Assembly (NCBI RefSeq): GCF_000518285.1
Contig: NZ_JADH01000013.1
Location: 1 to 41,097, forward strand
Length of the DNA stretch: 41,097 nt
Source of the DNA: Williamsoniiplasma lucivorax ATCC 49196
Lineage (GTDB): Bacteria > Bacillota_I > Bacilli_A > Mycoplasmatales > Mycoplasmataceae
Reading direction: 5' to 3'
The position numbers and the translations under genes were made by a program. The notes beneath the pieces are model-generated. The model saw only the letters and a program-made list of their open reading frames with translations. It ran no database searches and had not been told where the DNA came from. This document shows, one piece after another, positions 533-34,222 of the stretch (position 1 is the stretch's first letter; the number at the start of each line of letters is the position of its first letter).

Positions 533-2854
533 ATGAGTGAAACACAAAAAGCCATTTTTAAAGTTATTCGTTTTTATGACCCGAACAATAAAGATCAACA
601 TTTGTCCAGTTATTATCGCGGAACTAAAAATGGCAAAAATATGACATATTTAGATTACATTACACGTAATCAAGCATGTATTAAAAAAGCTTTGCCCGAA
701 AAAGCAATGCAAGTATTAGAAGAATTAGAAGAAGCACGTTTAGGTCATCGAATCGGATTAGTTCGGGAGTGAAGACAAAAATATGGGGCTTCTGAAAAAT
801 ATTTAAAAGAGGTAATGAAAATTATCGATGATAGATATAACGTTTGAAGTGATTGAAATGACAGATGAGAAACCGTTAACAAGCGTTATGGTTGAAATTT
901 TAAAAAGAAATACTTTGATAACATAAAACGATGAATTGACCCTAAAGATGATACTTTATCTAAAGAATTAAAAGAAAAATTATGAAATGAAATTAAAGAA
1001 TTTGAAAAATATGAGGCAAAAAAACATCGAGTATATGAAGAATTTTTGAAACAAAAATGAGGAACTGGCATTTATACAAATGATGCTGCCTGAAAAAGCA
1101 AAGGAAGTTTTAAGTTTGGAGAAATGTCCAAAAAAGAATTTTTGTCAAAAAAACAAGAATTTTTAGCCATGAAAAAAGATGATCGCCTCATGTGAGATAC
1201 CACACTGTCTTTTGACAAAAAATTTGCAGAACAAAACAAACTTCTTACGCCAGAAGTAATTGGTAAATTAATCGAAAAACATATTGACCAATTTTTTAAA
1301 GAGAATCACCTCGACCCTTCAAGAATGTTTTGGGGATTCTCAATGCATGGAAATACAAATAATCCTCATGTTCATTTGTTTTTTCAAGAACACACACAAA
1401 AAAATGGTGAATGAAGACTAAAGGGCGAGCTCACAGAAGAAAGTATGTCTGCTTTTTATCAAAGGGTTGCTTTGAATGCTCAAATTAACACCCTTTATTT
1501 ACAACAAATGAAAAGCATTCAATATGAAACCACTAAATTATTAACCGAACCAATTGCTGGGAAGTTTATTTTAAGTAATGATGAAAAGTGAAGCATTCAT
1601 AGAGATATTGTCAAAATGAATGAATTGGAGGTCGAAGTTCAAAATTTCAAGCTAAAAATTGAAAATTTATTACTTTTTGAACCAGCAAAAAATAATAAAA
1701 CTTTGGAAACGTTACAAAACCAATTAGAATCTAGCCAAAACAATTTTAATGAAGCTAAAGAAAATATTTTGCTTAAGCATTCAGTTGAAAATTTGAAATT
1801 ATATTTTAGTACAAGAGTAAGTTTAAATTTTAATGAAACAAAAATATTTGAAGAACTAAGCACTTATTTTTTAAATGATGGGACATGAAATATTTATAGA
1901 GATATTCAAAAAATAAGTAAGCTTGAAATTGAAATTCAAAATTTAAAGCTTGAAATTGAAAATCTATTGATTTCTGGATCTATTGAAGGCGATAAAATTT
2001 TGGAAACGTTACAAAAACAATTAGAATCTAGCCAAAACAACTTTAATGAATCCAAAGAAAAAGTCTCTAAATTAAAAACAATTGATTTTGCAGCTAATTT
2101 AACTAAAGTAAATTCTTTGGAATGAGACCAATTGAGAAAAAAAATGGTTAAAGGGCATGAACAAGAAAATAAAAATTATTTCCAATGATATGACAAAATG
2201 CAAAATTTTTTACTTCCTGACCAAAAATATTTAAGGTATGAAAACCTAACTGATGAAGGTAAAAAAATAGCTATTAAATACATTGAAGAAATGTTACTAA
2301 AAAATCCCGAAACTCAAAATCTGTGGGAAAAAGAAAAAGAAAATATTGATTTGTATACAAAAGAATTGTTTAAAGCTTCTTTTTATAACATCGGTAAAAA
2401 ACAGACTATGAAAATGCAAAATTTACAGATTCTGGATAATTTGGATAAAGTTGGTGTGCAAATCGACACAACCAAACTTTATAATTCTGAAATTAATATT
2501 GATAATGTAACCAAAGAGCAAAGGAATAAATTAATCCAAAAAGAAATCAATAATGCACTTTGAGAAAATAATGGATTTTTCTATGCTAAACAAGCAAACG
2601 TTCTTTTTGGGGAAATTCAAAACCAAAAAGAACAATTAGATAAAAAAAATAAACATTCTAAAAAATTTAATTTAAATAAAGCAATGAATATAGCTAATAA
2701 AGCAATTAATAATATTTTTAGTTTTGGTTCAAACAAAGCTGCTGCTGAATTTGAAAAAGAAATGGATAAAATTAGAAAACGTTTTGAAAATAATCTTGAA
2801 CAATATGAACGCGCAAAGCGCATCGCTTTAGAACAAGAAAGAATGATGAGGTAA
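533..2854 (+). CDS. MobL/MobP-like conjugative relaxase
   Basis: A 773-residue protein read through many Trp-TGA codons. The start ATG at 533 follows a good ribosome binding site (GAAAGGA). The diagnostic feature is the three-histidine metal motif HGNTNNPHVHLFF (H272, H279, H281), the HUH-type signature of relaxases that nick DNA at oriT and stay covalently attached through a Tyr; candidate tyrosines lie in the N-terminal SSYYRG segment. The N-terminal third is the relaxase part. The rest is Lys/Glu-rich and probably coiled coil, and contains a tandem duplication of 99 codons beginning near residues 349 and 448. It is followed after two bases by a small membrane protein and then the coupling ATPase, the normal order of a mobilisation operon. 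Family assignment rests on the motif and context; the exact MOB class was not testable. Confidence 0.8.
1577..2170 (+). repeat. 297-bp tandem duplication inside the relaxase gene
   Basis: Copy 1 starts at about 1577 and copy 2 at about 1874, an offset of exactly 297 bases (99 codons), so the frame is kept. Both copies encode a W-x-I-x-RDI start, then an E-x-E-x-QN-x-K-x-IENLL segment and LETLQ-x-QLESSQNNFNE. Near-identity at the DNA level is clearest around 1703-1760 versus 2000-2057. The later third of each unit has diverged. Confidence 0.8.
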
Positions 2855-2856
2855 AA

Positions 2857-3090
2857 ATGGGTACAACAATTTATATTTTGTTTGCTCTTAATTTAATGAT
2901 CATGAGTTGATTACTTTTTGACTCTTTCAAAATTAAGAAACAAATCAAAAAATGAAACAATGAAGGTTTATATGATAATGTCAAACCTTACAAAAAATCT
3001 AAAAATAAAATTAGAAGAAGTTTATATATTTTTATGGGTGTTACCTATTTAATATGTATTGCCTTACTAATAATGAATGGAGGTTTTTAA
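2857..3090 (+). CDS. Small two-span membrane protein of the conjugation operon
   Basis: A 77-residue protein starting two bases after the relaxase stop and ending directly before the coupling-protein ATG at 3091. An N-terminal hydrophobic segment (IYILFALNLMIMSWLLF) and a C-terminal one (YIFMGVTYLICIALLIM) flank a very basic middle rich in Lys and Asn. The last codons (AATGGAGGTTTTTAA) contain the GGAGG ribosome binding site of the next gene, so the two are translationally coupled. No family recognised. Size, topology and position suggest a helper that anchors the transfer machinery, which is inference only. Confidence 0.7.
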
Positions 3091-5634
3091 ATGAAATTTA
3101 AATGATGAAATAAAATAATAAGGAATTTATTTTTAATCCAATTAATTGTGTTTATTCCTTTAGCAATCTTGGTTTGATTGCTAATTATTGCTGCTTTTAA
3201 TATGGTGATGTCCAAAGAGACATTCAACATACTAAGCGCTATAAATGGAGGAAATATGATGGTTAACATCGGTTTTGCCTTTGTTGCTATTTTAATTGGA
3301 TTATTATTCGATTGATTTGCAGCAATCTTTGTTTATCTAAAATTTTGAAAAAGTAGTTTTCGCCAACATTTTGATACAACTGATGTTTCAACTAGTTTTT
3401 TAACAATTGATGATCGTCAAATTTTAGATAACACTCCAAAATGAAAAACAAAAAATGCAGACATTTATGATGTTGGTTCTAAACAACCAAAAAATGTCAT
3501 GGAAAGTTTTAATAAGTCTCTACAATTTGAAAGTAATAAGGATAATCCTGGTTTTCTGGTCCGCAATGTCTGAGATGCCAAAACTAAACAATTGAATGCA
3601 GTTATAGCTAATGATGTTAATGCTGCAGTTAATGGGGATACCGGTTCAGGGAAAACCGCTTCGATTATCATGCCAACAATAATTTATAATGCTAAATTAG
3701 AAAATAAACCAAGTATGGTCATTAATGACCCTAAAGGTGAGCTTTATCACAAAACAGCTAAAGAATTAAAAAATAATGGTTATGAAATTAAAGTTTTTAA
3801 TTTATTCGATACAACCAAATCCCATTCATGGAATCCTTTAACTTCAATTTTTGATAATTGACAAAAATATTTAAATACCCAACAAGAAATTCGTAAAGTT
3901 AAAGTTGGCGATGTTAATGAAGCTAAAGCAATGATTCAAGCACACTGTTGAACAAGTCATTGTTACACTCACTTCATGCTAGGGTGTAGTGAGTGCATTG
4001 AAAAACTTGTCGAAGAACAATATATCAATCAAAGCATTAATTGAGGGATTGGATTTGTTCAAATTGAAGACACAACTAAAAATGAAGCTACTGAGGTGTA
4101 TTTTGCAACTGATGAAGAAATGAATAAATGATTACACCAACGTCAAAGAATTCACAAAGGGGAAACCTTTGGGCAAATTTCAGAACTTGCAGCAATATTG
4201 TATACAATTCCCGATCCTAAAAGTGAGTTTTTCTATTCAGCTGCACGAGAATTCTTTGAAGGAACTTTACAATTTTTATTAGCGATTAGCACACAATTCC
4301 CAGAAGTTGTTAATCGAAGTAATTTTAATTTGAAATCAGTTCGAAAAATTATTGCTAACAAAAACAAATTTTTTGAAAAAATTTCAAATCATACTTCAGA
4401 TTTAGAAAAAGCTGCAGAAATTATAAAACAACTTTTTGAAGTTGAAGAGGATAAAATTTCTAATAAAGTTATTAACAAAGCTAAAGAATTAGAAGATTTT
4501 ATTGAATTAAACAGTTTAATTGAAAATGATTGACAAACAAAATTAGCAGATACTGCTCAAACTTTTTATAAGGATCCTGCTAATGTTGAAAACTGATGAA
4601 AAACAATGACCAATGCTTTACAAGTTTTTGACAACATCGAATTAGAAAGTATCATTTGTGAAACAACTATTCAGGCTAAAGAATTAATTACAAAACCAAC
4701 AGTTGTGTTTTTAATTATTCCAGACACTAAAACTGCTTATAATGGCCTTGTTTCACTCTTTGTGGGACAAATGTACTCCCAACTCATTTCTGAGGCGTCA
4801 AAACGCTCAGATTTGCGTTTAGAAAGAAAAATTCTTTTCATTCTGGATGAATTTGGTTTGATGAAACGAGTTGAACCACTTATTAATGCTTTTGCTATTT
4901 GTCGCAGTAGAAACATTAATATGTTAATTTGTTTCCAAATGCAATCACAATTATTAGAAACTTACGGGAAAAATAATTCATCTTCAATACTTGGAAACTG
5001 TCAATTAACTTACTTCATTTCTTCTCAAGAGCGTAGTGATTATGAAAAGTATTCTAAAGATTTTGGAATGACAACAGAATTAAAACGTACCTTTTCTTCA
5101 AACGATAAAGATACAAAAGAAAGCACATCTGAATCTTTAGAAAAAGTACCTTTACTTCCAATCGAAGAACTGGAGCAATTGAAAAAACCACTTGTAGCCA
5201 TTTTGTTAAATGACAAGAAGTATATTTCTTATCTCTTACCTACTTGAATTGGAGAAAATAATTTTATCGATTATTTAGGCAATAAAGTTTATGATCATTC
5301 ACCCTTAACTGTTCAAGAACAATTTAAAAACAACTTCTTATACAATGAGGGTTATGACATTAAACTTTATGACCCTTTAACTAAGAAAGCTAAAGAATTG
5401 GAAAAAGAAAATGCGGCAACTGATGCAGTTACAGAAATGATGACTGATGAAAATTCTAATGTTGTTCGACAAGAAATTTTAACCAATTCTTTAACAGATG
5501 AACGTTTAGAAAATTTAATGAACCAACTTATTGAACTAAAAAAGACAGGGGAAATGACTCCTGAAATTAGACAAAAAATTGTCGAATTAAACAAAATAAT
5601 TCTCCGCAAAAGAGTTAATATGAACAATAATTAG
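3091..5634 (+). CDS. VirD4/TraG-type coupling ATPase (type IV secretion)
   Basis: An 847-residue membrane ATPase that would bring the relaxase-DNA complex to the transfer channel. Two N-terminal membrane spans (about residues 12-35 and 55-85) precede the ATPase domain. Walker A is GDTGSGKTAS around residues 182-191, followed by the family hallmark NDPKGEL; Walker B is ILFILDEFG with D586-E587. A later CFQMQSQLLETYG block fits the sensor region of VirD4 proteins. Between the WNPL motif and the next conserved helix lies an insert (about residues 275-365) with four Cys and three His (C286, C291, C299, C302; H285, H290, H294), unusual for the family and a possible zinc site. The C-terminal tail is acidic and probably helical. 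The gene overlaps nothing and ends at a terminator. Confidence 0.85.
3953..4009. repeat. 57-nt imperfect inverted repeat inside the coupling-protein gene
   Basis: The ends CAAGT and ACTTG and the inner arms CACTCACT and AGTGAGTG pair around a central CTAG. The segment encodes the Cys/His-rich stretch of the coupling ATPase. A long hairpin of this kind inside a coding region is unusual in this window. Confidence 0.6.
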
Positions 5635-6791: not shown

Positions 6792-6827
6792 GGTTATTTA
6801 GTATAATTAATTTTGAGGTATCAAAAA

Positions 6828-8027
6828 ATGTGAATTAATGAAAAACTCGAATATAAAAAAATTCTAGACCAAAAGAAATTAGAACTAGAAGAATTAGATT
6901 ATAAGTTATTAAAAAATAGAGATAAAAAAAGATACATACTAATAAAAGTTGCACCCAGAACAATCTCTACAAAGTTTGGAATCTTAACATTTAATAGACG
7001 TATCTATATGGATAATACTAAATCTAAAGATAAATATCTATCATTGCTGGAAGAAAAAATAAATTTACCTAAATATGTAAAAATTCATCCCGACTTAGTT
7101 GAAGAGATCAAAAGCTATATTGGAGACGGGAAACGATATCGTGATATTCAAGATTTATTTCCTCATGCTAATTTATCTCAAATGTCGATTTCTAATATTT
7201 TTAAATCTGTTAAAAATGAAGAAAAAAGATTACATGTAAATAATAAAATAGCTTTACCAAACAAACAAACAATTTACATCTTTTTAGATGATACTTTTGT
7301 TAATCTGGATCGCTTGAAAGTTAGAAATAAAATTAGAAAAATTAAACGTCACAAAGACGTTAAAGTCCGAGTAGCTACTTTTTGTACAGGTTATGCCTGA
7401 AACAATAACTCTCGTAAACGCAAAAAACTAGCTAATAAAAAAATTGTTTATTGATTAGGCAAAGAAGAAAGTTTAACTACAGAACAATTATCCCAGCGAT
7501 TACTCGAACACTTAGAACAGTTCTATACTAATGTCGAAAATTGTCATTTAGTTGTTGGTGGAGATGGAGCTGGGTGAATTAAAAATGTTGCTTCATGATT
7601 ACATGCTGATTACATTTTAGATCGTTATCATGCAATTAAAAAACTAAGAACAACATTTTATAACAACACTACATACTACATACCTACATACTCCATACTA
7701 CATACTATGTACAATATTCCAACGAGCATCGTGGGTAAAGATTTGTTTTACATAACTAAAGATTTGTTCAAAAATGGTAAATATGAAATTTTATATGCAA
7801 TCTTACAAGAACTAGCAACTGATGAAGTAGCTAAATATTTTAAAAATAATAAAACAGGAATTATTAATCAAGGTGCAGCTTGGAATATTGGTGTTTCAGC
7901 AGAGTGTGAGATTTCCCGTTTAGTCAAATCTGCTTTAGGTTATGGTTCAAAAATCTATTCTCACATTGTTTTTAAAAACATTCTGAATGAGCGTGCTTTT
8001 AAAATAAATAACAATTTATGCGTTTAA
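6828..8027 (+). mobile_element. ISLre2/UPF0236-family transposase
   Basis: A 399-residue transposase. The ATG at 6828 follows TTGAGGT, and the frame stays open to TAA at 8025-8027 with TGA read as Trp. Family features: an N-terminal Lys/Glu helix, a region with YRDIQDLFPHANLSQMSISN resembling the UPF0236 helix-turn-helix part, IFLDDTFVNLDRLK (first acidic position), VVGGDGAGWIKN followed by ILDRYHAIKKL (second acidic block), and SAECEISRLVKSAL near the C-terminus (acidic third block). Residues about 282-294 (TTYYIPTYSILHT) are encoded by a low-complexity repeat, so the protein may be altered there. No terminal inverted repeats or target duplication were identified, so element ends are unknown. 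Slightly shorter than I would expect for the family. Confidence 0.8.
7670..7710. repeat. ACATACTACAT-type repeats inside the transposase frame
   Basis: Copies of TACATACTACATACC and CATACTACATACTATG lie directly after the DRYHAIKKL block. The array resembles 6751-6791 and keeps the reading frame open. Confidence 0.7.
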
Positions 8028-8324
8028 TCAATTATTAACTTCTTGTATTTGCCCCAAAATCTCTCCATTACAAGACATTTTTAGTTTTTATTGAATATAA
8101 GAGTGGTTTAACTTAAAAAAGCCTTGAATAAGGTTATTTTGCTATGCTAAATATTTTTTTGACACTATTCAACACCTTTTTTATATCTGTGCTAAAATAT
8201 TTTTGACAGTTGGAATATGATCTAAAATCTCTACACCAACCCCTACAACAAATTTATACAACCAATTGGTGCTGCGACTATTTGAAGAATTTTTGAATTC
8301 TTGATTTTTTTAAAATGCATATTG
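8028..8324. other. Intergenic region between transposase and nrnA
   Basis: No gene. Two imperfect copies of a TGCTAAATATTTTTTGACA-like word occur at 8145-8164 and 8190-8208. A hairpin with 7-bp arms AAGAATT/AATTCTT (8285-8302) is followed by a run of T, suitable as a forward terminator for the transposase transcript. The right end of the insertion element should lie here but I could not define it. Confidence 0.5.
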
Positions 8325-9287
8325 TTATCCTGCCTTTTTAATTAGTTCTTGTGCTTCTTGAATAATTAGTTTTGCTTGATCGAGGTTATCAATGATTGCT
8401 CCGGCTGCCAATTTATGACCACCACCACCTCAATTGGTGGCAAGTTCATTGACAGGAATTCTTTTACTGCGAAATTCGACACGGTATTTTTGGTCTTCAC
8501 GAATAGCAAAAGTAATTCAAATTTCCATGCCATCAATCCCACTCAATAAATTGGCAAATTTTCCATTTTCGTCATATCTTAAATGATATTTTTTTAACAA
8601 TTCATCAGTTAAAACAATATAACCAACTTGTTCAACAAAATTAGCTGTTTGCATCAATTCTGCTTGAAGTTTTAAATCAGAAAATTGTTTATTGTACATT
8701 TGTAAATGTAAAGCATTTAAATCAAAACCACTTTTCAATAAATGAGCAGCTACCTCGAGTGTTCTTGGGGTTGTTGCTGAAATTGAAAAGCGTAATGAAT
8801 CAGTTAAAATTCCGTGATAAATAACCCGTCCAGTTTCAGGACTAATTTTTCAATTTAATTGTTGGGCTAAATACCCAACCATTTCACTAGCACTTGTAAA
8901 GCTAGTATCGACTCATAATAAATCTCCATAAGGAGTAGTGTTGGGGTGATGATCTAATTTAATTAAAAAATTACCCATTGAAAAACGTTGGTCGTCAATT
9001 CTTTCTATGTTGGCACAATCAGTGACAATGACTAAAGCATTATCATATTTTGAATCCGCAACATTAGTGTCCATTGAACCAATGAATTTCAGGTAATTTA
9101 TGTCTAAACCGACAGCTAACACCTTTTTCTTGGGGTAGTTATTTTGAATTAAATATTTTAAACCCAGTTGAGAGCCATATGCATCACCATCGGGGATGAT
9201 ATGTCTGTGCAAGATGATAGTGTCGTAGCTTTCAATAGCTTGTTTTATCTTCTTGATAATTTCCATATTTTTATTAGTTGAAGTCAA
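8325..9287 (-). CDS. nrnA: DHH/DHHA1 phosphoesterase, NrnA-type (nanoRNase / pAp phosphatase)
   Basis: A 320-residue DHH-superfamily enzyme, a usual NrnA length, expected to degrade 2-5 nt RNAs and to convert pAp to AMP in the cytoplasm. Metal-binding motifs are all present: HRHIIPDGDAYGSQ near the start, VTDCAN, DHHPNTTPYGDLLW, GILTDSLRF, and the DHHA1 glycine motif NWGGGGHKLAAGA near the C-terminus. The start is taken as TTG at 9287, because AAGGAGG (9299-9305) lies 11 bases upstream and no in-frame ATG is near; the next in-frame ATG (9264-9266) is 32 bases from that site. The ATG at 9295-9297 is in another frame and stops after seven codons. The gene stands alone between noncoding regions. 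Related GdpP-type domains are absent, so a c-di-AMP hydrolase of that type is unlikely. Confidence 0.9.
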
Positions 9288-9870
9288 GTTTCAACATGCC
9301 TCCTTGCTCCTATATTAACACCAAAAAAATACTAAAAAATTAAAGGTTAAAATAATTTATTTCTAATTGATTTTTAATAATAAAAATGTGTAAAACTAAG
9401 GTTATTTTGTTAAAAATTTTTCAAATTAATAATAAGTTTGAATCAAGTTATTTGATTTATTATTCTAAAAATTTTGCTTATTTTGTTAATTATTTTTTTC
9501 CACCAATTTGAATAGATTTTCAATTAGTTTTCCAATTCTAAATAGCAAAAAATCATTCAATAATACTAGCGGTTGGAATTTATTTTCTAAGAAATATATA
9601 TAAATTGGAATTTATTTTAGTTAAAATAACAATGTCTAGATAAAAAAATGACAAAGGATTGCTTTTATATTTTGGTAAATAGTAGTCTAACAGAGTGTGT
9701 TATTACATTTAAAAACTTGCTCTTAAAGGGTTATGATTATTTTTTGTAAATAAAGTTTTAAAAAACTAGACATGTTTAACACCATCAATGTTGGAAAGAT
9801 TTTCTTTTTGATATTCAATATTACCAATTTAAATATTTAAGCACCAATAAAGTTAGAAGAAGGAGTTAGT
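9288..9870. other. Long AT-rich intergenic region with short repeats
   Basis: No open frame that looks coding on either strand. TTGGAATTTATTTT occurs twice (9574-9587 and 9605-9618). An 8-bp inverted repeat ATGTCTAG/CTAGACAT (9632-9639 and 9766-9773) brackets 126 bases. The divergent promoters of nrnA and the PatB-type gene must lie here, but I cannot fix their -10/-35 boxes. Confidence 0.5.
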
Positions 9871-11061
9871 ATGGATAACATATTTGACAAAAAAATAGAC
9901 AGAAGCAACCACGAAGAAAAAAAATGATCTTTAGAACATCTAAAAAGAACATTCCCTGTGAATTTTTCTAAAAAATTACACAGTTTATGAATTGCTGATT
10001 TGGATTTTGAAACACCAAAACCAATTGTTGACGCAATTAAAACAAGAGCCAACAAAGCAACTTATAGTTATGGTTATATTCAAAATGAAGCAATCGAAGC
10101 AATCGTTTTATGATATAAAAAACTTCACAATATCACTTTAGATAAAAGTATGATTCAAATTGTTGATGGGATTGTTAATTCCATGATTGAAGTGATTAAA
10201 TGTTTTACCAAAGAAGGTGAAAGTGTTTTAATTCAAACACCAGTTTATAAACCATTTGAAGAAGTGATTTTAAATACTAAACGTAAATTAGTGGCTAATA
10301 AATTAGTTCATAAAAACAATGAATATCATATTGATTTTGATGATTTTGAAAAACAAATTGTTGATCACAAAGTAAAATTATTCCTTTGATGTAACCCACA
10401 CAATCCAGGTGGTAGAGTTTGAAGAGATGATGAAGTTTTAAAAATTATTGAAATTTGTAACAAACACAATGTCTTCATCTTATCTGATGAGGTTCATGGT
10501 GACTTAGTCTTAAAAGGTGAACATAATTCAATCTTAAGATTTGCTGATAAAGTTAAAGAATTTATTGTGGTTAATTCACCAAACAAAGGTTTTAACTTAG
10601 CTGGATTGTATGGTTCATATATGATTTTTTCAAGTCAAAAAACTATGGATCTAGTTATGAATACTTATAAACAAAGTCGAGTAATGACACCAAATGTCTT
10701 TTTCCAACCTGCTTTGATTGCGGCCTATGCTAATGACGAATCATTTAAATGATTTAAAGCGATGAAAAATTACATTCATGATAACTACCTATTCATTAAA
10801 GAAGAATTTACTAAACTTGGTTTCTTAGAACCAATGAATGTTGAAGCTTCATATTTAATTTGAACAAAAATTAATCTTGATCTTGATTGAGTGGCTCTAA
10901 AAAAAGAACTCTTCAATCATGGTGTGATTGTCAGTTTCTTTGATTCATTTATGGGAGCTGAACCAGGTTGATTTAGAGTCAATATCGGCTTACCAAGAGC
11001 TGAATTAGCTCAAGGAATTGAGGAAATAAAAGCAGTTCTAACAGAATTTAAGAATAGATAG
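9871..11061 (+). CDS. PatB/MalY-type PLP-dependent C-S lyase (cystathionine beta-lyase-like)
   Basis: A 396-residue fold-type I aminotransferase-like protein, cytoplasmic. Recognition blocks of the MalY/PatB group: LWIADLDFETPKPIVDAI near residue 49, WCNPHNPGGRVW, ILSDEVHGDLV, and the PLP-lysine block SPNKGFNLAGLYGS with K239 as the Schiff-base lysine. The C-terminal substrate region has FRVNIGLPR with the carboxylate-binding Arg. Members cleave cysteine, cystathionine or related beta-substituted amino acids to a thiol, ammonia and pyruvate by way of 2-aminoacrylate. The start ATG has a strong AGAAGGAG site. It precedes a permease and ridA on the same strand, which fits aminoacrylate chemistry. 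The true substrate cannot be read from sequence; a plain aminotransferase is less likely given the motifs. Confidence 0.8.
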
Positions 11062-11144
11062 AATAAAAAAATAAAAAGTGTGTAGAAAGTAGGAAAATAA
11101 AATTTCTGATTTATTTTCTAATGTTTAAACGCCTTTTTAATTTT

Positions 11145-11173
11145 ATTTTATTGGTGTGTCACACCAATAAAAT
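11145..11173. promoter_or_regulatory. Perfect 13-bp inverted repeat upstream of the permease
   Basis: ATTTTATTGGTGT and ACACCAATAAAAT flank a 3-base loop (GTC). No T tract follows on the forward strand, so it is a poor terminator. It ends 23 bases before the permease ATG and may be an operator or a leader hairpin. Confidence 0.6.
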
Positions 11174-11196
11174 ATAGAAAGAATTTATGGTTTTTT

Positions 11197-12909
11197 ATGA
11201 ATAAAGACAAAATAAAAAATATGTTTAAGCGTAAAGACAGACCATCAGACCAAAAAATTGGTTTAAAACAACTAATATGATTAGGATTTGATTACACCGT
11301 TTCAATGAGCTTTGTTTTAATCTTATCAAAAACATTTAGTGGGGCCGAAGGGGTTGGATATAATCTCTTTTGAATTATCCTTTTAGGTGGTTTTGTGGCT
11401 GGAATTGCTGGTTTAGCTTTTGCTAAATGCGCCAACATCTTTTCAGAACGAAGTGGAGGACCATTTGAATATTCAAGAAGAACATTTGGTCATTTTGCCG
11501 GATGAATGATTGGGATTTATCAATATGTTTTAATTCCCATTTCAGCAACTGCTAACCTTTTGGTTTTATTATCAATTTCTCTACAAGGTTTATACTCACC
11601 AACAATGTGAGGGAGTGAAGAATTAACACAATTATATTTAAACTTAATATCAATTGGAATTTACATTGCAATCTCTTTAACTGTGTTATTAGGGACAAAA
11701 ATATTTAAATTTGCCACAAATATCACTAGTATTATTAAATGAATTGTGATGTTAATGGTTTATGTCGGAGCAATGGTGATCATGGCTCGTAATAGTGGTA
11801 AAAATTTTGATGAAGCACTAGGAACTGGGAGTTTAACAGTGGGAAATTTTAACACTGCATTTACAGCATTCTTCTATGCTTTCACTGGTTTTGAAACATT
11901 CTCAACAATTGGAGATAATGTGAGAAACCCTAAAAAAACAATGCCAAAAGCAATTATGATTGTTTTAGCAATTGCGGTGGTTTTTTACTTAATTGGTTTA
12001 GTTTTCTTAATTGGAGGACTTGGTAGCTTCTTCCCTGAAAACCCAAATAATGCAATTATTGAAATGGTCATGGGAACTGGGGCTTTAGTTTTTGTGGCAA
12101 TTTCTTTAATTGCCCAAAACCTAAACAACTTTATGCAAGGAACATATTATAGTGGGGGAATGTTACAACCATTAGCTGAACAAAAAATGATTTCAGCTAA
12201 ACTTGCTCAAAAAGACGAAACAGGATTAGCAATCCGTGCGATTTTCTTAAATATTATCCTGACTGTTATTTTTGGGATGATTTGACTTGTTTTACCTTTT
12301 ATTACCAAAGATAAATCAATTGATTTTGCCGCGATTGTTGGTTTTAAATCAATTGTCATGTTTATTATTTATGGAACAGTAATTGTGATTGCTTTACTAC
12401 TAACTTTTAAAAAGAAAACAAAAACTAATTTAATTGTTTGTGTGTTTTGAATGTTTGCCTTAGTTTTCTTGTTCTACCAATGTGTGATGTATTTTATTGA
12501 TTGAAATGCACATAAGTTTCAAATCTTAACTTTTGTTGGTTTAACAGTTCTGGCCATTATTTGGTACTTTGCTTGGATTCGCCCAAGACATCAAAAACGT
12601 TTAGCAAGTGGTGAAATCACTTTACAAAAAGTTAGTGATTTACCAGATTGATTGGATTCAGAAGAATTTAAAGAATTATCAATCTTAAAAGAAAAAGCTC
12701 TTGATATGAAAATGCGTAGTTTAAAAGACGGTAGTGATGCGATCTTGATTCCACGTTTGATTTTAAAACTTAAAATCAAAAACAAATACAAAAAGACTGA
12801 GGGAAAATTAGAACTAACTAATTTAACTAAAACAGAATTAATGGTTAAATTAAATGGACCAATAGTTACAAATCAAACAATCGAAATAAAGAAAAACAGT
12901 AAGGAATAA
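11197..12909 (+). CDS. APC-superfamily amino-acid permease
   Basis: A 570-residue integral membrane transporter of the amino acid-polyamine-organocation superfamily. About twelve hydrophobic spans follow an N-terminal basic segment. The first span contains LGFDYTVSMSFVLILSKTFSGAEG, in keeping with the APC substrate-binding helix, and ERSGGPFEYSRRTFG matches the family loop after span 2. A later block AFTGFETFSTIGDNVRNPKKTMPKA is the well-known conserved APC cytoplasmic loop. The last 100 residues are a charged cytoplasmic extension. Start at 11197: an ATG ten bases upstream opens only a five-codon frame that stops within the gene's second and third codons. ridA begins two bases after the stop. 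Substrate is unknown; context suggests cysteine, methionine or a related amino acid. Confidence 0.85.
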
Positions 12910-18806: not shown

Positions 18807-20045
18807 ATGAAAGAAATGAAAAAAACAAAACTCATTGCATTAACAATAATAAGTGCATCTTTAATTGCTGTCCCAATCATTACAGTCGTCACCGGCTTTA
18901 ATTTCAATGCGTCTTCTAATTCACTTTGAGCGATTGCAAATTTTAGACAACCTACAACTAAAACAGGTTGAGAAATGTTACGAGTTGATGCGATTAAAAA
19001 CAAAACACGATACTTTCAAAATGTGGAAAATCTTGCTTATGATACTGCATTAAAAAACAAAACAATGGATGACACATCAATGAATGATTACATTAGTTTT
19101 CAAATTGAAAAAGGCATGGATTTTCAATTTTATTTAGCTTATGTTTTGCGAGAAATGTTGGCTAATGTTAATTTATTTAAAATTACTCAAGATCCCACAA
19201 CATATCAAATCCAAGGTCAAGATTTAGATAATTTAGTACCATTTGAATTGATTAATTTAACTTCTAATAATTATGCTTACATTATTTGAAACATTGTTAA
19301 AGAAGGTGCGATCGCTTTAACCAATATTCCTTTAAATCCTGATTTGAGAAATTTGGTCAACTTAACTCTCGATGAGATTAGGAGTTTAAAAATTTATGAT
19401 GATCAAATTAATAATCTTTGAACATCAGGATTAAAAGATTATTTTGCTAGTAAAATGGCTGATTTAACAAAAGCAAATTATCAAAAAAATAAAGCCAAAG
19501 AACTCAATCAATTAAATTTAGACTTAGCAAAAGCTAAAGCAGAACACAAATCTGAAAAAATAATTGAGGAGATTGAAGCAAAAATAGTTGTGAAAAAATT
19601 AGAAATTCAAGTCCGTTTTGATCAATATAATTATGAACTGGATCAATTTGCAAAAAATATTACCATCTATCAAAATGAATTATCTACATGAGTTGCCGAA
19701 CAAACTAATTTAAATCATCAACAATTGCTTGATAAAGTAAAAGAACATCCTAAATTTAAAATCTTTATGCTTTTAAATTTTTATCAAATCAGTTATAAAG
19801 AACAAGCTTTAGCAACATATCAAGTAATTAAAACAGTCATTCCAGACTTAGTCATTCCAGATAAATTTGTTATATCTGATTGAGAAAATCATTTCATGCT
19901 ACTAGCCAAACAGGGAAAAAACACCATTGATTTTGTAGTTAAGAGTAAAGATGAGGTTGTTGTAAATCTCAATGAGATTCCTTTGTCTGATGAAATTATC
20001 AATGCGGCTGCCTTGCAAGAATATAAAGGGGGACAAGATGCTTAA
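18807..20045 (+). CDS. Signal-anchored coiled-coil protein, first gene of the GH85/ABC operon
   Basis: A 412-residue protein with an N-terminal signal-anchor segment (KLIALTIISASLIAVPIITVV) and no lipobox Cys, so it is probably membrane-tethered and faces outwards. An ATG at 18816 (MKKTKL) is an alternative start; TATAAT at 18803-18808 would place transcription start almost on it. The middle (about residues 220-285) is a Lys/Glu-rich coiled coil (LAKAKAEHKSEKIIEEIEAK). I recognise no family. The last 8 bases overlap the ABC ATPase gene, so it is translated together with it. It may act as an extracellular partner of the transporter or of the GH85 glycosidase, which is inference from position. 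Confidence 0.75.
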
Positions 20046-20742
20046 AGCAATTAAAGTTAATAATATTATGAAAAAATTCAAAAATCACATCGTACTGAAC
20101 AATGTGAGTTTTGAAATTAAACAAGGTGAAAGTGTAGCTTTTATTGGGAGTAATGGTTCTGGAAAAACCACACTTGTTGAAATTATTGCAGGGTTACAAA
20201 TTCCCACTACTGGAACTGTCTTTTTTGATGACCAAACACCTGAAAAATTTACTAAATTAGGCATTCAATTTCAAGAAGGTGAATGACCAAAAGGAACTAC
20301 TACTAATGATATTATCAAATTTTATTTAGGTAAAAAATTTGCTCAATCAGAGCAAATTCGCACGATTATCGATATGTTCGAAATTAATGATTTTTTAAAA
20401 GCAGATTTAACCAACTTATCTGGTGGTCAAAAACAAAGGTTTAATGCTTTTCTGGCAGTTTCCAATGAACCAGAAGTAATTATTTTAGATGAGTTAATCA
20501 CTAGTTTGGATTTGAAAATGCAGATTAAATTGATTGATTATTTTAAGCAATATCAAAAAGAAAAACAGGCCACAATGATTATGATTACCCATATGCCTGA
20601 AGAAGTGGAAATCATGTGTAACCGGATTATTTTATTAGAACAAGGCAACTTGATTTTAGATGCTAATGTCAAAGATGTTGTAAAGAAACACGGAAGTATC
20701 AGAAAGATGATTATCAAACATTATGCTGGCGAAAAAATATAA
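20038..20742 (+). CDS. ABC transporter ATP-binding protein
   Basis: A 234-residue single ABC ATPase. Walker A is IGSNGSGKTT, the Q-loop lies in GIQFQEGEW, the signature is LSGGQKQR, Walker B is VIILDELITSLD (the normal DEP has become DEL, keeping the catalytic Glu), and the switch His lies in MITHMPEE. The type is that of ABC-2 drug, antibiotic or polysaccharide exporters. The start overlaps the previous gene by 8 bases behind a GGGGG ribosome binding site. The 3' end overlaps the permease start by 20 bases. It should energise the two ABC-2 permeases encoded on either side of the GH85 gene. Confidence 0.92.
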
Positions 20743-21610
20743 CAATTTAAACTTTGAACTTGATTCATTTCGCAAAACTTTTAAATTATTTTTCACCTTA
20801 ATGGTGAAAAATCCTAAAACTTACATCTTGTATTTAATCTTCCCGCTCTTCCCGCTCTTATTGATTTTATTTATTTGAACAATTGCCATTAGTGCTAATA
20901 TTTATCCACCAATGTTGATTAACTTCTTAGGTGTAAATCTGATATTTTCTAACTTTTTTGTAATTCAAACTTTGATTAATTGGAAAAACAGTATTATCTT
21001 AAAACGGATTAAAATGAATGGGGTTTCTAAATATAATTTCATCTTAATTTTATATTTAATTTTTATTCCGTTGTTTATGTTATCGGTTGTGATCAATATG
21101 TTATTTTTTGTCATCATCGCTAAATCCATACCATTTTCTGAACAAATGTTTATGGCAGCAACAATAGCTTTTCTTAATTTAGCATTGGATAATTTTACTC
21201 CCTACACTTTCATCTTTTCTTTTTTAATATTAACTCTCTTTGCAATTTTTCTTTTTTCAATGATTTTGATTGTTGTTTTTAAAGTTCGTAAAAATGGTTA
21301 TGTGCGTGTGATTTTATTTTCATTTTTATTATTCACATTACTTTTTTCTGACATTATTATTAATAGTCAAATGTCTTCACAATGAGAATGGATGATTATT
21401 ATTGGCTATTTTAGTCCAGGAAGATATTTCATGTGAGTGCTCTTGTTTATCAATTCTTATGCTAACATTGACCCACTAGGAGTGACCCAGATTATTGATT
21501 ATGTATTTGGTTATTTATCATTTCCAAAAATGTGAATTCCATCACTGGTATCAGGGGTGTTGTTATGTACAACACCACCACTGTCATTTGTGTTATTTAA
21601 CTGGAGGTAA
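20723..21610 (+). CDS. ABC-2 type permease, first of two
   Basis: A 295-residue membrane protein with about six hydrophobic spans. The N-terminal cytoplasmic helix (NFELDSFRKTFKLFFTLMVKNP) leads into span 1. The motif NWKNSIILKRIKMNGVSKYNF is the characteristic short cytoplasmic segment after span 2 of ABC-2 permeases (usual form: KR-x-x-x-TG). The partner permease at 24612 has the parallel DWKDSILIKRIRMSGLTNN, so the two are paralogues and probably form a heterodimer. The start lies inside the ATPase gene. The last codons contain the GGAGG ribosome binding site of the GH85 gene. Confidence 0.85.
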
Positions 21611-21616
21611 AAACTT

Positions 21617-24600
21617 ATGAAAAAAATTTTTCCGATTTTTATTATATCAACATTAGTCATTGGCATGACTGCTAATTTTATTGTAATTAATATTGGCAAT
21701 ACAAGTATTAGAAAATATCTTGAAACATTACCTGATTTTGATTGGAGTTCTGATTATGGTGATCGTGCCCCAAGCATTAAAATTAAACCAATTGATTTAA
21801 AGAAAAATCGAGATATTGTTGCTCCTGATACAACTTATGCTGATGCTTGAGATTCGGTTTTTGATTACACCAATTTTCACACTGGCTATCAATATCATGA
21901 TTCAATCACAAAACAAGGTGTGACCGGCGCACCAACTGGTAAACTTTTTCAACCAAATGGAAATATTGGTTTAGATTTTGGTTTGACTAGTCGAGCAATT
22001 AGATTTCAAGAGTTAAATTCTTTTTTAACATGAAGTCCTGAAAATGATATGGATGCGAAGTACAATGTGCCAACTATTCCCCATGCTGCAAAATCAATGC
22101 GTGTTGCTGCTCCGTGAGCAGCAACACAAAATGCCCAAATTCTTTGTCAAATGTTATCAGGCCCAAATATTGAAAAGCGGGTTCCAGCAACCACAAATAT
22201 TGGTTTAAAAAACAATTTTGAAATTGCCTTTCCAAACTTACAATACACCGATTACATGACTGGTTGAGGTGGGTCTTGATTTGAAGGACTAATTAAAATC
22301 CCGCCAGCAGATTTTGTTGAACAAGCACACAAAAATGGAACGCATGTTTTTGGAAATGTCTTTTTAGATGGTTTTCATGGACTCTCTAAAAGGATGTTAA
22401 GAGATTTTTTAAAGAAAGATAATCAAGGTAATTATTTGATTGCCCAAATTTTAATCAATATGGCCACTTATATGAATCTTGATGGTTGGTTTTGAAACAA
22501 TGAAGCAAATGGAGGTCTACCGAATGGTTCTATTTTAGACTATCGTGAAGTTAAAACTATTTTTGAACAAATGAATAAAATTATTAAAGAATCAAAAGAT
22601 CCCAAAGTTGCTAAATTACAAAATGAATATTATGTCAACTTTAGTTTGCAATACAATTCTGCTGGTCGTCCAGATTATCCCGAAACTGCTGATATGGTGA
22701 AAGTATCTCAACTTTATCAACAAAATTTTGATTTTGATCCATACAATATGAAAGATGTGATGAGTTTTAATCCACATCTTGACCCATACAAATTATTCTC
22801 ACTTGTGGAGCTTTCAGGCACTGGGTTAAGAGGAATTTATGATACAAGAACAATCACAACTGAAGCGAGAAATTATGATGGTTCACCATTCACTAATTCT
22901 TATGATCGGACTAATGCATTAAATCAAAATAATCGCGTTAGATTTTTTGGAAACCCCTTACTTTCAGCTGGGTTTTTCGAAGGTGATGGTGGAGCTGGTT
23001 ATGGTGCTGAAGCTTTAGGTATCATGGAGCAAACAAGTGAATATCAAGCAGCAAAAAATTCTGGACTTTTACCTTGATGAAAAGAAAATATGTATGCTCA
23101 ACAAGTGGCTAATCTGGCTGATGATTTATTATTTACCGGAAGAAATCGTTTTGTCCGTGGTTACGCATCAGAAGCAGACCCACAATATGATGCTGGACAA
23201 AAAGGAAAAATTAGTTGACTTAATCCAGATGGTACACCAAAAAGTGATGCCGAATTAGCGAAATTCCAACCTGATGATTGAAAAGTTGATAGTCATTTTA
23301 CAAGTGATTATGGAATGACCAATAATGGTTGAAATAGCCAATGAGTTAAAGGTCAATGGCCAAACGAAACCCAAAGAGCACCACTCATTAAAACACTTGA
23401 CGTCTTGCCAACTTTTGCCAAAGTTGAAGATTGAAAAAAACATAATAATAATTTATCTTTAAAACAACGTCAATGAATGTTTGCCAAAGATCAAGATGGT
23501 AATTATGTTTATTCATCAGGAGAAGGTAATGCTCGTCAAGAAGCAACAATCATCAACAACCAATTAGAAGATGATTTAGTGACTAATTTTTCCACAGGAA
23601 ATGGAATTTATTTTAAAGATGCTGAAGGTAATTTAATTGAAGCATACCCATGATCAAATCGACGTTTGGCAGATGTTCAACCAACATATAAATGAGATGT
23701 GAAACAGTTTGATACCACCAAAACATACAATTCAGAATTAGAAAATTTTCCGCAAAATCAAATCTCAGGATTTTATGATTATTACAATATGTATCAAAAA
23801 GGTAATTCAATTGCTTTAGGTAAAAAGATTAATATGGATGGTTCTGTGGTTGGTTTTGATGCTAAGCAAAACCAAAAAATTCTCTGAAATATCATGGGAG
23901 CCAATCTAGATAGAAGCAAATTGAGTGATCAAAAAATCTCTTTTAAAATTCAAGGAAATTTTGCAACAGAAAATACCAAACTGAATGATTCAAGACATAT
24001 TCCGATAACAGATTTAGAAAAAATGTTTGATTTCAATGTGGTTTTATCTGATGGCTCATTTACCCAAGACCATTCACAAACTGATGGTTTAACTAGATAC
24101 AAAGATCTTGCTAAATTTTATTCATTAAAACCAGTTATTACCCCCGATAAATTTGATTCTAATTGATTAGATATCACTTTAGATTTATCTAAAATACCAA
24201 ACCCAATTCCAGAAGGCCAAAAATTATCAAAAATTGGTCTTGCTCTCACACCGCTACAAGATGTTCAAAATGTGGTTTTTAATGTTGGTCAATTTTCCTT
24301 GGTAAGACAGCCTCAAGCCACACTATCTAATAGTAATTTTGGTACTATCCAAAATTTCAATTCAGAATATGTGGTGCAAAGAAAAACCTCGTTGAATGCA
24401 AGAATTGGATGAGAATTTAATGGAGATAAAACTAATCTTGATTACTATGAAATTTATGCTATTGATAGTGATAACAAAAAAATTCGATTAGGCGAAACAA
24501 CCCAAAATATTTATTACGTTAAAAACTTGCCAGTTGATCAAGAATTAAGAATTGGGATTAAACCAATTTATAAAAAATATGACCAACAAATTTTAGGAGA

Positions 24601-24646
24601 AACATATATTTATGCAATTAGTAAAAAACCAAAAAACTGAAAATAA
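21617..24646 (+). CDS. GH85 endo-beta-N-acetylglucosaminidase (ENGase)
   Basis: A 1009-residue exported glycosidase. An N-terminal hydrophobic segment (IFPIFIISTLVIGMTANFIVIN) without lipobox suggests membrane anchoring or secretion. The GH85 barrel follows: FLTWSPENDMDAKYNVP, RVAAPWAATQNAQI, YMTGWGGSWFEGLIKIPP, AHKNGTHVFGNVF, and the active site LDGWFWNNE at residues 288-296, where N294 and E296 form the Asn-x-Glu pair that orients the 2-acetamido group and acts as acid/base in the family's substrate-assisted mechanism. The enzyme cuts the GlcNAc-beta-1,4-GlcNAc core of N-glycans. About 600 further residues form beta-rich C-terminal domains that may bind glycan. It sits inside an ABC transporter operon, 6 bases after one permease and overlapping the next by 35 bases. 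Confidence 0.82.
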
Positions 24647-25490
24647 AATTAATAACAAATTTACAACCCAAACCAGAACAATTGGTTTAATGTTTAAAAC
24701 ATATTTAAAAAGTTCCGAAACATATTTATTTTTGATTGTTTTTCCAATTTTGTTAACTATTTTAGCATATGCCATTATTAGTCTCTTTTTTGCATCAGAA
24801 GTTAGACCTCCGTTAATGGGGGGGATCATTTCTATTGGTTGTTTAGGTTCAATGTTTTTAGTCAACACGATTTTAGCTGATTGAAAGGATTCGATTTTGA
24901 TTAAAAGAATCAGAATGAGTGGATTAACAAATAATGGTTTTTTGTTAGCATTTTATTTTATCAACATTTGTTTTGTTCTTCTCGCTTTTTGTTCTTCTTT
25001 ATTCTCGGTTTGACTAATTGATAAAATTTTTCAATTGAAAAATTTGATGACTTTTATCGAACAATTAAATGATTATTGATTGAACTATCTTGGCTTTATT
25101 TTTAGCTATATTTTATTAGTCACAACAGCCTTATCATTAGCAATTTTGATTGTTGGTAAAATTAAAAAAAGGCTTATTGCTGATATTGTTTTAGCACTTT
25201 TAATTTTATATATTTTAATGGTTTCGGATTTAATTTTAGATCCAGCAATTATGAAAAAAAATTTATTTTATAACATTCTTGGTTATGTTGATCCAATCAA
25301 ATATATTGTTTGATTAATCTTTATGTTTTCTTCGTCGATGATCAATAGTCCAGAAAATATTGAGCTTATTATGCCAACAGATGGACTGGTGTTTTTAAAA
25401 TATTTATGACAAGGTTTAGTTTTTTCGATGATCATTAGTGTTTCGATCACAACTTTAGCATTTCTCTTTTTCAGCATTAATCGAAAATAA
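24612..25490 (+). CDS. ABC-2 type permease, second of two
   Basis: A 292-residue membrane protein, paralogue of the 20723 permease: a cytoplasmic N-terminus with Lys/Asn/Gln, a TYLFLIVFPILLTILAYAI first span, then DWKDSILIKRIRMSGLTNN, the ABC-2 hallmark segment, and four further spans. It begins within the last 12 codons of the GH85 gene (35-base overlap), which makes translational coupling very likely. Together with the upstream permease and the single ATPase it can form a heteromeric exporter. It could move the glycosidase or a coupled peptide or lipid, or in principle serve uptake, though ABC-2 architecture favours export. A terminator follows. Confidence 0.85.
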
Positions 25491-32894: not shown

Positions 32895-34222
32895 TTAATG
32901 TACATCAAGAATTGGAATTTGGAAACTGTTTTTAATTAATTGGGAGTTCGGTAATGATCGAACCATAATTATACCCGGTTTTCTTGTACTCCCGATAACT
33001 TGATAGTCAATATCTTTTTTGGCTTCTGGTGCTACTGTATGAATTTCCTCTTCAACTCAAGAGTATATGTTTTCGATCTTAGTTTTTATTGGAAAAGTAC
33101 GAATGTGTAATTTTCTAATAGTTACTCTTTTATCAATTGGTATCGAAATGTTTCTAGAAACAACAGCAATAGTTTTTGAACCTTCAAGTCATTTTGATGA
33201 TTCTTGTGTTTGGACTTGAATGCTTCCCTTATTTTTAGTGTTTCCAGAAATCCAATAGTCTCGATTAAGTTGTGCATCTGGTGCTAATGCATAAATTGCA
33301 TCCATAACATCAGCTTCGATTTGTTCCAGATCATCCTCAACTTTAACCTGATTTATATCAATTTTATGTGAAATATTAATTTTTTCAATTCAACTTTTTG
33401 GTTTAACAACTTTAATTTTAAAACTATCTTTAATGAACTTAGAATTAGGTTTAGCTTTTACTAAAATTCCACCCTCTTTTTTAGTGTCACCTTTAATTTC
33501 AAAATCTTCATTAAGTTTTGCTTCGGGTGCAATTTCATGAATTTTATCCAAAATTTTTGCCCTTACTTGTTTCATATCAGCCCCAATACGAAGATCTGGT
33601 GTAAATTTGATTTGTTTTAAACTTTCCTTAACTATTTTACTTGATAATGAAATAACCTTAATTTCAAATTGATCTTTTAATATTTTAGAAGAACTAACTG
33701 CCTTCACCACAATTTTTCCAACCTCTTTTGTATCACCTTGAATGACAAAGTCTATACCAAGTTTTGCTTCCGGTGCTATTTTATAAACATCAAGCAAAAT
33801 CTTATTTTTTACAAGTTCCATATTATACTCAACTCTAACATCTTCTGATTTTATTTTTTGCAAACTTTTTTTCGCAGTTTCTACATGCTTGCCCGCATCT
33901 TTAACAATGTTAATTTCAAACTGGTCAACTAATCATTTTGAATCTTTTGTTGCTTTAACAATAATGTGTCCTGCTTGTTTAGTATCACCTTCAATAGTGT
34001 AGTCTTTCCCAAATTCTACATCAGGTATTTTGCCTATAATTTTGCTATGAACTTCTTGTTGCAAGCTTTTCATATTAAAGCCAACTTCTTTATCACCAAT
34101 ATGAATATCAGAAATGCTAATTGCCCCTGATGATTCTTGGTCATTTTTGTGGCAACAACAGCAGTTGTAGCTGTTGTTGCCACCAAACCAATACAACCTA
34201 ACAATGTTAATAAATTTTTCAT
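32895..34222 (-). pseudogene. Five-repeat lipoprotein gene with a frameshift in the signal peptide
   Basis: GGAGG and ATG at 34222 open a typical signal, MKNLLTLLGCIGLVATTATT then AVVA, but this frame leaves the body after about 24 codons and stops 38 codons later. The body lies in another frame from CHKNDQESSG onwards and continues through Trp-TGA codons to TAA at 32895. It contains five modules of about 75-90 residues with the pattern (I)APEA-x-L-x-x-DY-x-IxGDTK-x-x-G-x-I-x-VKA-x-x-SSK-x-L-x-D-x-F-x-I-x-V. The lipobox Cys is missing at the junction. Adding four bases restores one frame of 443 residues with VVAC. The same module occurs in the lipoprotein at 38434. It is a pseudogene, a phase-off surface protein, or a sequencing error at a hairpin. 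Confidence 0.75.
34149..34183. repeat. Perfect 14-bp inverted repeat in the lipoprotein signal sequence
   Basis: GTGGCAACAACAGC and GCTGTTGTTGCCAC flank a 7-base loop. It encodes the end of the signal peptide and coincides with the frame change. Confidence 0.9.

What the first reader, a model, noticed from the sequence alone, without database searches (positions are those of the whole stretch)
18807..25490. GH85 endoglycosidase embedded in an ABC-2 transporter operon
Five genes overlap or abut: signal-anchored coiled-coil protein, ABC ATPase, ABC-2 permease, a 1009-aa GH85-like enzyme with N294-x-E296, and a paralogous ABC-2 permease that begins inside the GH85 gene. The overlaps (8, 20 and 35 bases) imply fixed stoichiometry. 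GH85 enzymes release whole N-glycans from host glycoproteins. A dedicated glycosidase-exporter unit in a cell with no wall would be a new host-interaction or feeding system: the ABC complex may place the enzyme on the surface, or may move its products. Family calls come from motifs; the coupled function is inference.
Basis: partly seen in the sequence, partly recalled or inferred. Interest (0 to 1): 0.85.

Follow-up and report, generated by a model that had tools for sequence, protein, structure and literature searches.

The report
Surface glycan-cutting enzyme with dedicated transporter
A family of wall-less, mostly insect-associated bacteria carries an enzyme predicted to cut whole sugar chains off host proteins, and it is almost always encoded together with its own ATP-driven membrane complex, so the two probably work as one surface machine whose exact job is not yet known.

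Summary
Under genetic code 4 the five genes lie at the stated coordinates and overlaps. The 1009-aa protein is a GH85 endo-beta-N-acetylglucosaminidase: Pfam 72.7 bits against a cut-off of 22.2, and N294, E296 and Y339 (the Endo-A N171/E173/Y205 set) are kept in all 32 near-complete mollicute copies aligned. The linkage is not an accident. In 34 mollicute GH85 loci an ABC-2-like permease of one family adjoins the enzyme in 32 and an ABC ATPase in 31. Three gene orders each follow their own GH85 clade. GH85 and ATPase distances correlate (r = 0.89). Every strong hit of the permease profile lies at a GH85 locus, and ten non-mollicute Bacilli GH85 loci lack the permease. The enzymes carry Sec anchors or lipoprotein signals, so they need no ABC export. 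The genome lacks GH38, GH92, GH125, GH20 and GH3, so feeding on whole imported glycans is doubtful. The coiled coil is a local insertion. Best reading: a membrane-anchored ecto-deglycosidase worked by an ATP-driven ABC-2 complex, analogous to YbbAP-TesA or FtsEX-hydrolase units. The module is well supported; the mechanism is inferred (about 0.4). No paper found describes the pairing.

The parts
18807..20045 (+). N-terminally anchored extracellular accessory protein (412 aa); anchor at about 6-28; lineage-specific helical hairpin at about 209-297
   Evidence: profile finds relatives at the same operon place in most other type I loci; coiled coil only here and in L032. N-terminal 70 columns match the otherwise different accessory family of type II operons (hhalign E 9e-6). 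Fold poor apart from the hairpin.
20038..20742 (+). ABC ATPase (234 aa) with intact Walker A (GSNGSGKTT), signature (LSGGQ), Walker B (VIILDE) and H-loop
   Evidence: PF00005 8e-26; GH85-linked ATPases separate from a stand-alone sister system by a 100/99 branch.
20723..21610 (+). ABC-2-like permease A (295 aa, 6-7 predicted TM)
   Evidence: Family profile A2; no PDB sequence match; AlphaFold model too weak (pLDDT 46).
21617..24646 (+). GH85 endo-beta-N-acetylglucosaminidase (1009 aa), N-terminal membrane anchor, catalytic N294/E296, probable third residue Y339
   Evidence: PF03644 72.7 bits; PDB 3fha by profile 1.6e-47, EndoD 2w91 1.1e-32; residues invariant in 32/32.
24612..25490 (+). ABC-2-like permease B (292 aa), paralogue of permease A, starts 35 bases inside the GH85 gene
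   Evidence: 28% identity to permease A, E 6.9e-19; same overlap of 35 bases in the nearest relative L032.

Best explanation
The five genes encode one dedicated surface machine. GH85 is sent out by Sec and held in the membrane by its N-terminal anchor (a lipid anchor in most relatives). Outside, it cuts the GlcNAc-GlcNAc bond in the core of N-glycans on host glycoproteins. Two ABC-2-like permeases, probably a heterodimer here and a homodimer in the single-permease operons, sit with two ATPase subunits under it. The anchored accessory protein bridges them. ATP hydrolysis inside the cell works the extracellular part: it loads, presents or releases the substrate, or switches the enzyme, rather than exporting the enzyme or importing whole glycans. 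The likely use is stripping glycans from host proteins that reach the wall-less membrane (immune or lectin-type binding, or access to the protein). Shown here: gene identity, catalytic residues, surface signals, dedicated co-inheritance. Inferred: physical complex, ATP coupling, host substrate and purpose.
For: GH85 identity and catalytic set. Membrane or lipoprotein signal at every intact N-terminus. Permease adjoining in 32 of 34 loci and ATPase in 31 of 34; median gap between module genes -0.5 base, 92 of 102 gaps at most 30 bases. All A2 permease hits with E below 1e-48 lie at GH85 loci in the 60-genome search. Bacilli GH85 loci lack the permease. Permease at E <= 1e-20 only in this family within 395 sampled genomes of the class. 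GH85-ATPase Mantel r 0.89, 0 of 5000 permutations as high. GH85 clades match operon order with the minimum possible number of changes, 4 against 23.9 shuffled. One genome (G030) holds three copies, each with its own transporter (L036, L037, L038). GH38, GH92, GH125, GH20 and GH3 not found in this genome. Precedents for an ABC complex that works an extracytoplasmic hydrolase: YbbAP-TesA (PMC12646458), FtsEX (PMC11627006).
Against: No physical contact, ATPase coupling or enzyme activity was tested. The precedents YbbAP and FtsEX are type VII ABC proteins, not ABC-2 proteins. The permease fold could not be modelled. Type III operons have no recognised accessory protein. One full GH85 copy (L095) has no transporter beside it. 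Adjacency with ROK-type sugar kinases in five type III loci hints at metabolism.
Confidence: 0.4

Rival explanations
1. Nutrient uptake: GH85 frees N-glycans and the ABC complex imports them (or fragments) for catabolism, as EndoD and ABC-NG do in the pneumococcus.
For: Pneumococcal EndoD with NgtS-P1-P2 is a proven GH85/ABC pair, and that pathway's locus includes a putative ROK kinase (PMC5215778). A 320-aa gene lies next to five type III modules and the copy tested is a ROK kinase; the own genome has two ROK genes elsewhere.
Against: No solute-binding protein or CUT1 permease in the unit; ABC-2 permeases are usually exporters (general knowledge). No GH38, GH92, GH125, GH20 or GH3 found in this genome; in the 40-genome sample GH38 occurs mostly in genomes without GH85. 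ROK genes are not at the window's locus. Other mannosidase families were not searched.
Confidence: 0.22
2. Efflux or membrane-clearing transporter like LanFEG-LanI: the ABC complex with its anchored accessory protein expels host peptides or lipids from the membrane, and GH85 helps by trimming glycosylated attackers or by exposing them.
For: Same parts list as LanFEG plus LanI: one ATPase, two six-helix permeases, one membrane-anchored surface protein (PMC5786555). Wall-less cells depend on membrane protection. The sister two-gene system has no GH85.
Against: No sequence link to LanFEG was found or specifically tested; GH85 is not expected in an immunity transporter, yet it is the constant member here.
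Confidence: 0.18
3. The ABC complex exports or installs the GH85 enzyme on the cell surface.
For: Tight operon and co-evolution.
Against: The enzymes carry ordinary Sec signals or lipoboxes; ABC-2 systems that move folded 100-kDa proteins are not known to me.
Confidence: 0.07
4. Transglycosylation: the unit moves host N-glycans onto the bacterium's own surface molecules to mask it.
For: GH85 enzymes transglycosylate, with Y205 affecting the balance (PMC2646837); mycoplasmas are reported to put scavenged hexoses on surface proteins (abstract of PMC12453214).
Against: No acceptor known; Y339 is kept, which favours hydrolysis; no direct evidence.
Confidence: 0.06

Closest known systems
EndoD / ABC-NG (NgtS-NgtP1-NgtP2) of Streptococcus pneumoniae
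   Same: Surface GH85 functionally tied to an ABC system (PMC5215778); EndoD structure 2w91 matches the profile.
   Different: ABC-NG is a sugar importer with a solute-binding protein, encoded apart from endoD and linked to GH38/GH92/GH125. Here the ABC is ABC-2-like, has no binding protein and interleaves with the GH85 gene, and those exoglycosidases were not found.
YbbAP-TesA of E. coli
   Same: ABC complex paired with a dedicated extracytoplasmic hydrolase and proposed to present substrate to it (PMC12646458).
   Different: Type VII permease and lipid hydrolase; no sequence relation shown.
FtsEX-EnvC / FtsEX-PcsB, CwlO, RipC
   Same: ATP-driven control of extracellular wall-cutting enzymes by an ABC complex that does not transport, sometimes through a coiled-coil protein (PMC11627006, PMC7668044).
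   Different: Type VII fold; peptidoglycan substrate, which mollicutes lack; not homologous by any test here.
LanFEG-LanI lantibiotic immunity
   Same: One ATPase, two six-helix permeases, one anchored surface protein (PMC5786555).
   Different: No glycosidase; target is a peptide.
MIB-MIP of mycoplasmas
   Same: Mycoplasma surface pair that captures and processes host glycoproteins (immunoglobulins); a mollicute-specific F1-like X0 ATPase lies in the same genomic region (PMC6456743).
   Different: Protease, not glycosidase; no ABC-2 complex.
Stand-alone two-gene ABC-2 system of the same mollicutes
   Same: Nearest homologues found of both ATPase and permease.
   Different: No GH85, no accessory protein, one permease; also in genomes without GH85.

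Membership tests
GH85 (endo-beta-N-acetylglucosaminidase) | Sequence match over the curated family cut-off | tested here: met
   PF03644 72.7 bits against 22.2; profile to 3fha E 1.6e-47.
GH85 (endo-beta-N-acetylglucosaminidase) | Catalytic Asn-x-Glu plus Tyr (Endo-A N171, E173, Y205) | tested here: met
   N294, E296 and Y339 conserved in 32/32 mollicute rows and aligned with N, E (10/10) and Y (9/10) of Bacilli GH85.
GH85 (endo-beta-N-acetylglucosaminidase) | Release of N-glycan from glycoprotein | not testable with these tools
   Needs an assay, e.g. RNase B.
ABC-2 (type V) transporter | ABC ATPase with complete motifs | tested here: met
   PF00005 8e-26; Walker A, signature, Walker B and H-loop present.
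ABC-2 (type V) transporter | Permease matches ABC-2 family models | tested here: inconclusive
   Window permeases have no hit; 7 of 25 family members hit PF12698, best 4e-6; sister family 51 bits against cut-off 31.6.
ABC-2 (type V) transporter | ABC-2 membrane fold | tested here: inconclusive
   Model pLDDT 46; no usable PDB match.
N-glycan import system (EndoD/ABC-NG type) | Solute-binding protein and CUT1 permeases with the GH85 | tested here: not met
   None among the module genes in window or relatives.
N-glycan import system (EndoD/ABC-NG type) | Exo-mannosidases and hexosaminidase for the released glycan | tested here: not met
   GH38, GH92, GH125, GH20, GH3 not found in G000, which is 98.66% complete; other families not searched.
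LanFEG immunity transporter | Homology to LanF/LanE/LanG and role in peptide efflux | not tested
   Only the parts list was compared.
Mechanotransmission ABC-hydrolase unit (YbbAP-TesA, FtsEX) | Type VII permease with large extracytoplasmic domain | tested here: not met
   Permeases are 292-295 aa with 6-7 predicted helices and no long extracytoplasmic stretch. It may work like one; it is not a member.

The most novel reading that the evidence does not exclude
A new class of ATP-driven surface deglycosylation machine in wall-less bacteria: an ABC-2 heterodimer that does not move a solute but drives a tethered GH85 through an anchored bridge protein, in three operon types that evolved as units and that remove N-glycans from host proteins at the bacterial membrane.
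Probability: 0.3. Interest if true: 0.82.

Novelty: new variant of a known kind. Interest (0 to 1): 0.62.

Why it matters
Surface GH85 enzymes and ABC complexes are each well known. A GH85 that is inherited as a unit with its own ABC-2 complex, in three gene orders and in up to four GH85 copies per genome, was not found in the papers searched. It would explain what many unnamed ABC genes in Entomoplasma and Spiroplasma do. It gives a testable route by which wall-less insect symbionts alter host glycoproteins. It would also extend the idea of ABC complexes that drive extracellular hydrolases to the ABC-2 type.

Tried and rejected
Coiled coil as the key feature: rejected, it is present only here and in L032. 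Chance insertion of GH85: rejected. ABC as exporter of the enzyme: unlikely because of the signal sequences. Fixed stoichiometry from overlaps: not supported, gene orders and permease number vary. Structure of the accessory protein and permease: models too weak; the Foldseek search of the permease model was meaningless. Genome-wide file of the host not available. First genome-contig scan empty; the second gave only three named Spiroplasma loci. An apparent loss of the ATPase in L048 was an artefact of my ORF filter; the gene is intact in another frame. An apparent loss of the catalytic motif in L092 was an artefact of my pattern (NGWFINNE). Promoter scan of the operon: no more sites than shuffled sequence. 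A first HMM run failed because gapped rows were read and was repeated correctly.

Full report
What is there. They lie between pth (peptidyl-tRNA hydrolase) and metG, both housekeeping genes. The window is contig C12 of a 1.10-Mb, 31-contig genome. Host identity is an inference. Relatives in its genus have 1,031,560 and 868,413 bases, which fit Entomoplasma luminosum (1,032 kb) and E. somnilux (868 kb) in the table of PMC6117150. This draft would then be the one species of that group listed without a closed-genome accession, E. (Williamsoniiplasma) lucivorax, given there at 1,127 kb against 1,103 kb here.

The enzyme. The 1009-aa protein passes the curated GH85 cut-off (72.7 against 22.2 bits). 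It aligns with Endo-A (3fhq) with N171 and E173 opposite N294 and E296. A profile of 21 mollicute relatives finds Endo-A and pneumococcal EndoD (1.6e-47 and 1.1e-32). Endo-A catalysis rests on N171, E173 and Y205 (PMC2646837). In an alignment with ten ordinary Bacilli GH85 proteins, N294 and E296 match in every row, and Y339 matches Y in 32/32 mollicute rows and 9/10 Bacilli rows. So it should be catalytically able; no activity was tested. Every copy with an intact N-terminus starts with a Sec-type hydrophobic segment, and most have a lipobox; the window's protein has an anchor without the cysteine.

The partner genes. The ATPase is canonical. The two permeases are paralogues at 28% identity, with no other copy in the genome. 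Their family reaches ABC2_membrane_3 in 7 of 25 members, and a sister family passes that model's cut-off. The fold could not be confirmed: AlphaFold pLDDT was 46 on a four-row alignment, and the structural search of that model gave nothing usable. The upstream protein is an anchored extracellular protein whose conserved part is its N-terminal region. The coiled coil occurs only here and in L032. A different-looking accessory family in type II operons shares its first 70 columns (hhalign E 9e-6).

Is the pairing real? GH85 was found in 20 of 60 relatives, in 10 of 25 genera. I read 34 mollicute loci (window, L032-L056, L091-L098). A permease of this family adjoins the GH85 in 32 of them. The exceptions are L056, a decayed gene, and L095, an extra copy in a genome with other modules. 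An ATPase is present in 31 (L048 re-read; L094 has none). Gaps between module genes have median -0.5 base. Ten GH85 loci from other Bacilli have no such permease. The reverse search agrees: in 60 genomes every permease hit with E below 1e-48 lies at a GH85 locus. Hits between 1e-42 and 1e-26 are mostly away from GH85 and belong to a separate two-gene ATPase-permease system without GH85, which also occurs in genomes lacking GH85; the few others in that band are divergent or broken module permeases of G007 and G004. In a sample of 395 genomes of the class, hits at 1e-20 or better occur only in this family.

Co-inheritance. Mollicute GH85s form one group apart from Bacilli (100/100). Three operon orders map onto it with 4 changes, the least possible, against 23.9 for shuffled labels. 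They are type I accessory-ATPase-permease-GH85-permease (the window), type II accessory-ATPase-permease-permease-GH85, and type III GH85-ATPase-permease. GH85 and ATPase distance matrices correlate at r = 0.89 over 30 loci; the best of 5000 permutations was 0.23. Shared species history contributes to such a correlation. But three paralogous modules in one genome (G030: L036, L037, L038), each with the ATPase of its own clade, cannot be explained by species history alone. GH85-linked ATPases separate from the stand-alone system by a 100/99 branch. Broken copies often show several module genes damaged together (L040, L054, L089, L090). This suggests one functional unit.

How it may work. Export of the enzyme is unlikely, because Sec or lipoprotein signals suffice. 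Import of products, as in the pneumococcal EndoD/ABC-NG system (PMC5215778), is possible but lacks the binding protein. GH38, GH92, GH125, GH20 and GH3 were not found in the genome, and GH38 in relatives sits mostly in genomes without GH85. In favour of import, a 320-aa gene, a ROK kinase in the copy tested, neighbours five type III modules. LanFEG-LanI has the same transporter parts (PMC5786555). YbbAP-TesA (PMC12646458) and FtsEX (PMC11627006) show that ABC complexes can work an extracytoplasmic hydrolase. I therefore favour an ATP-driven, membrane-tethered deglycosidase (confidence 0.4). The purpose, removing glycans from host proteins at the wall-less surface, is inference.

What is known. 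Papers mention a Spiroplasma endo-beta-N-acetylglucosaminidase as a possible pathogenicity factor (PMC9666726) and as up-regulated in a S. poulsonii strain (PMC7187355). The literature searches of the held library found no description of its pairing with an ABC-2 complex. The library omits most subscription journals. Novelty is therefore rated as a new variant of a known kind.

Noticed in passing
L089 (S. poulsonii MSRO_BK) and L090 (S. ixodetis), around 7100-12760 and 7446-10750: GH85, ATPase and permease genes of the module are broken into pieces, although PMC7187355 reports an endo-beta-N-acetylglucosaminidase as up-regulated in the BK strain; sequencing error or another copy is not excluded.
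   Followed up: partly
L139-L161 (e.g. L141:9047-10619): A separate two-gene ATPase plus ABC-2 permease system, the nearest relative found of the module's transporter, occurs across the family with no GH85; function unknown.
   Followed up: partly
L043:13026-13988, L044:13210-14172, L037:5981-6943, L045:5744-6706, L098:7358-8320: A 320-aa gene lies beside the type III module in five loci; the L043 copy is a ROK-family sugar kinase and the others share its length and place.
   Followed up: partly
L050:7933-9095: A polysaccharide deacetylase gene and a small three-helix membrane protein lie directly upstream of a type III GH85 module.
   Followed up: no
L091:3867-11209: Two GH85 genes bracket one ATPase-permease pair, with a GDSL lipase gene further upstream.
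   Followed up: no
window 533-5634 and 6813-8027: MobL relaxase, T4SS coupling ATPase and a UPF0236 (transposase-like) gene: a mobile-element segment at the left end of the contig.
   Followed up: no
window 32895-34196: Protein with five spiralin-domain stretches (PF05215, 195 bits), a surface-protein family of Spiroplasma, here in a likely Entomoplasma-group genome.
   Followed up: no
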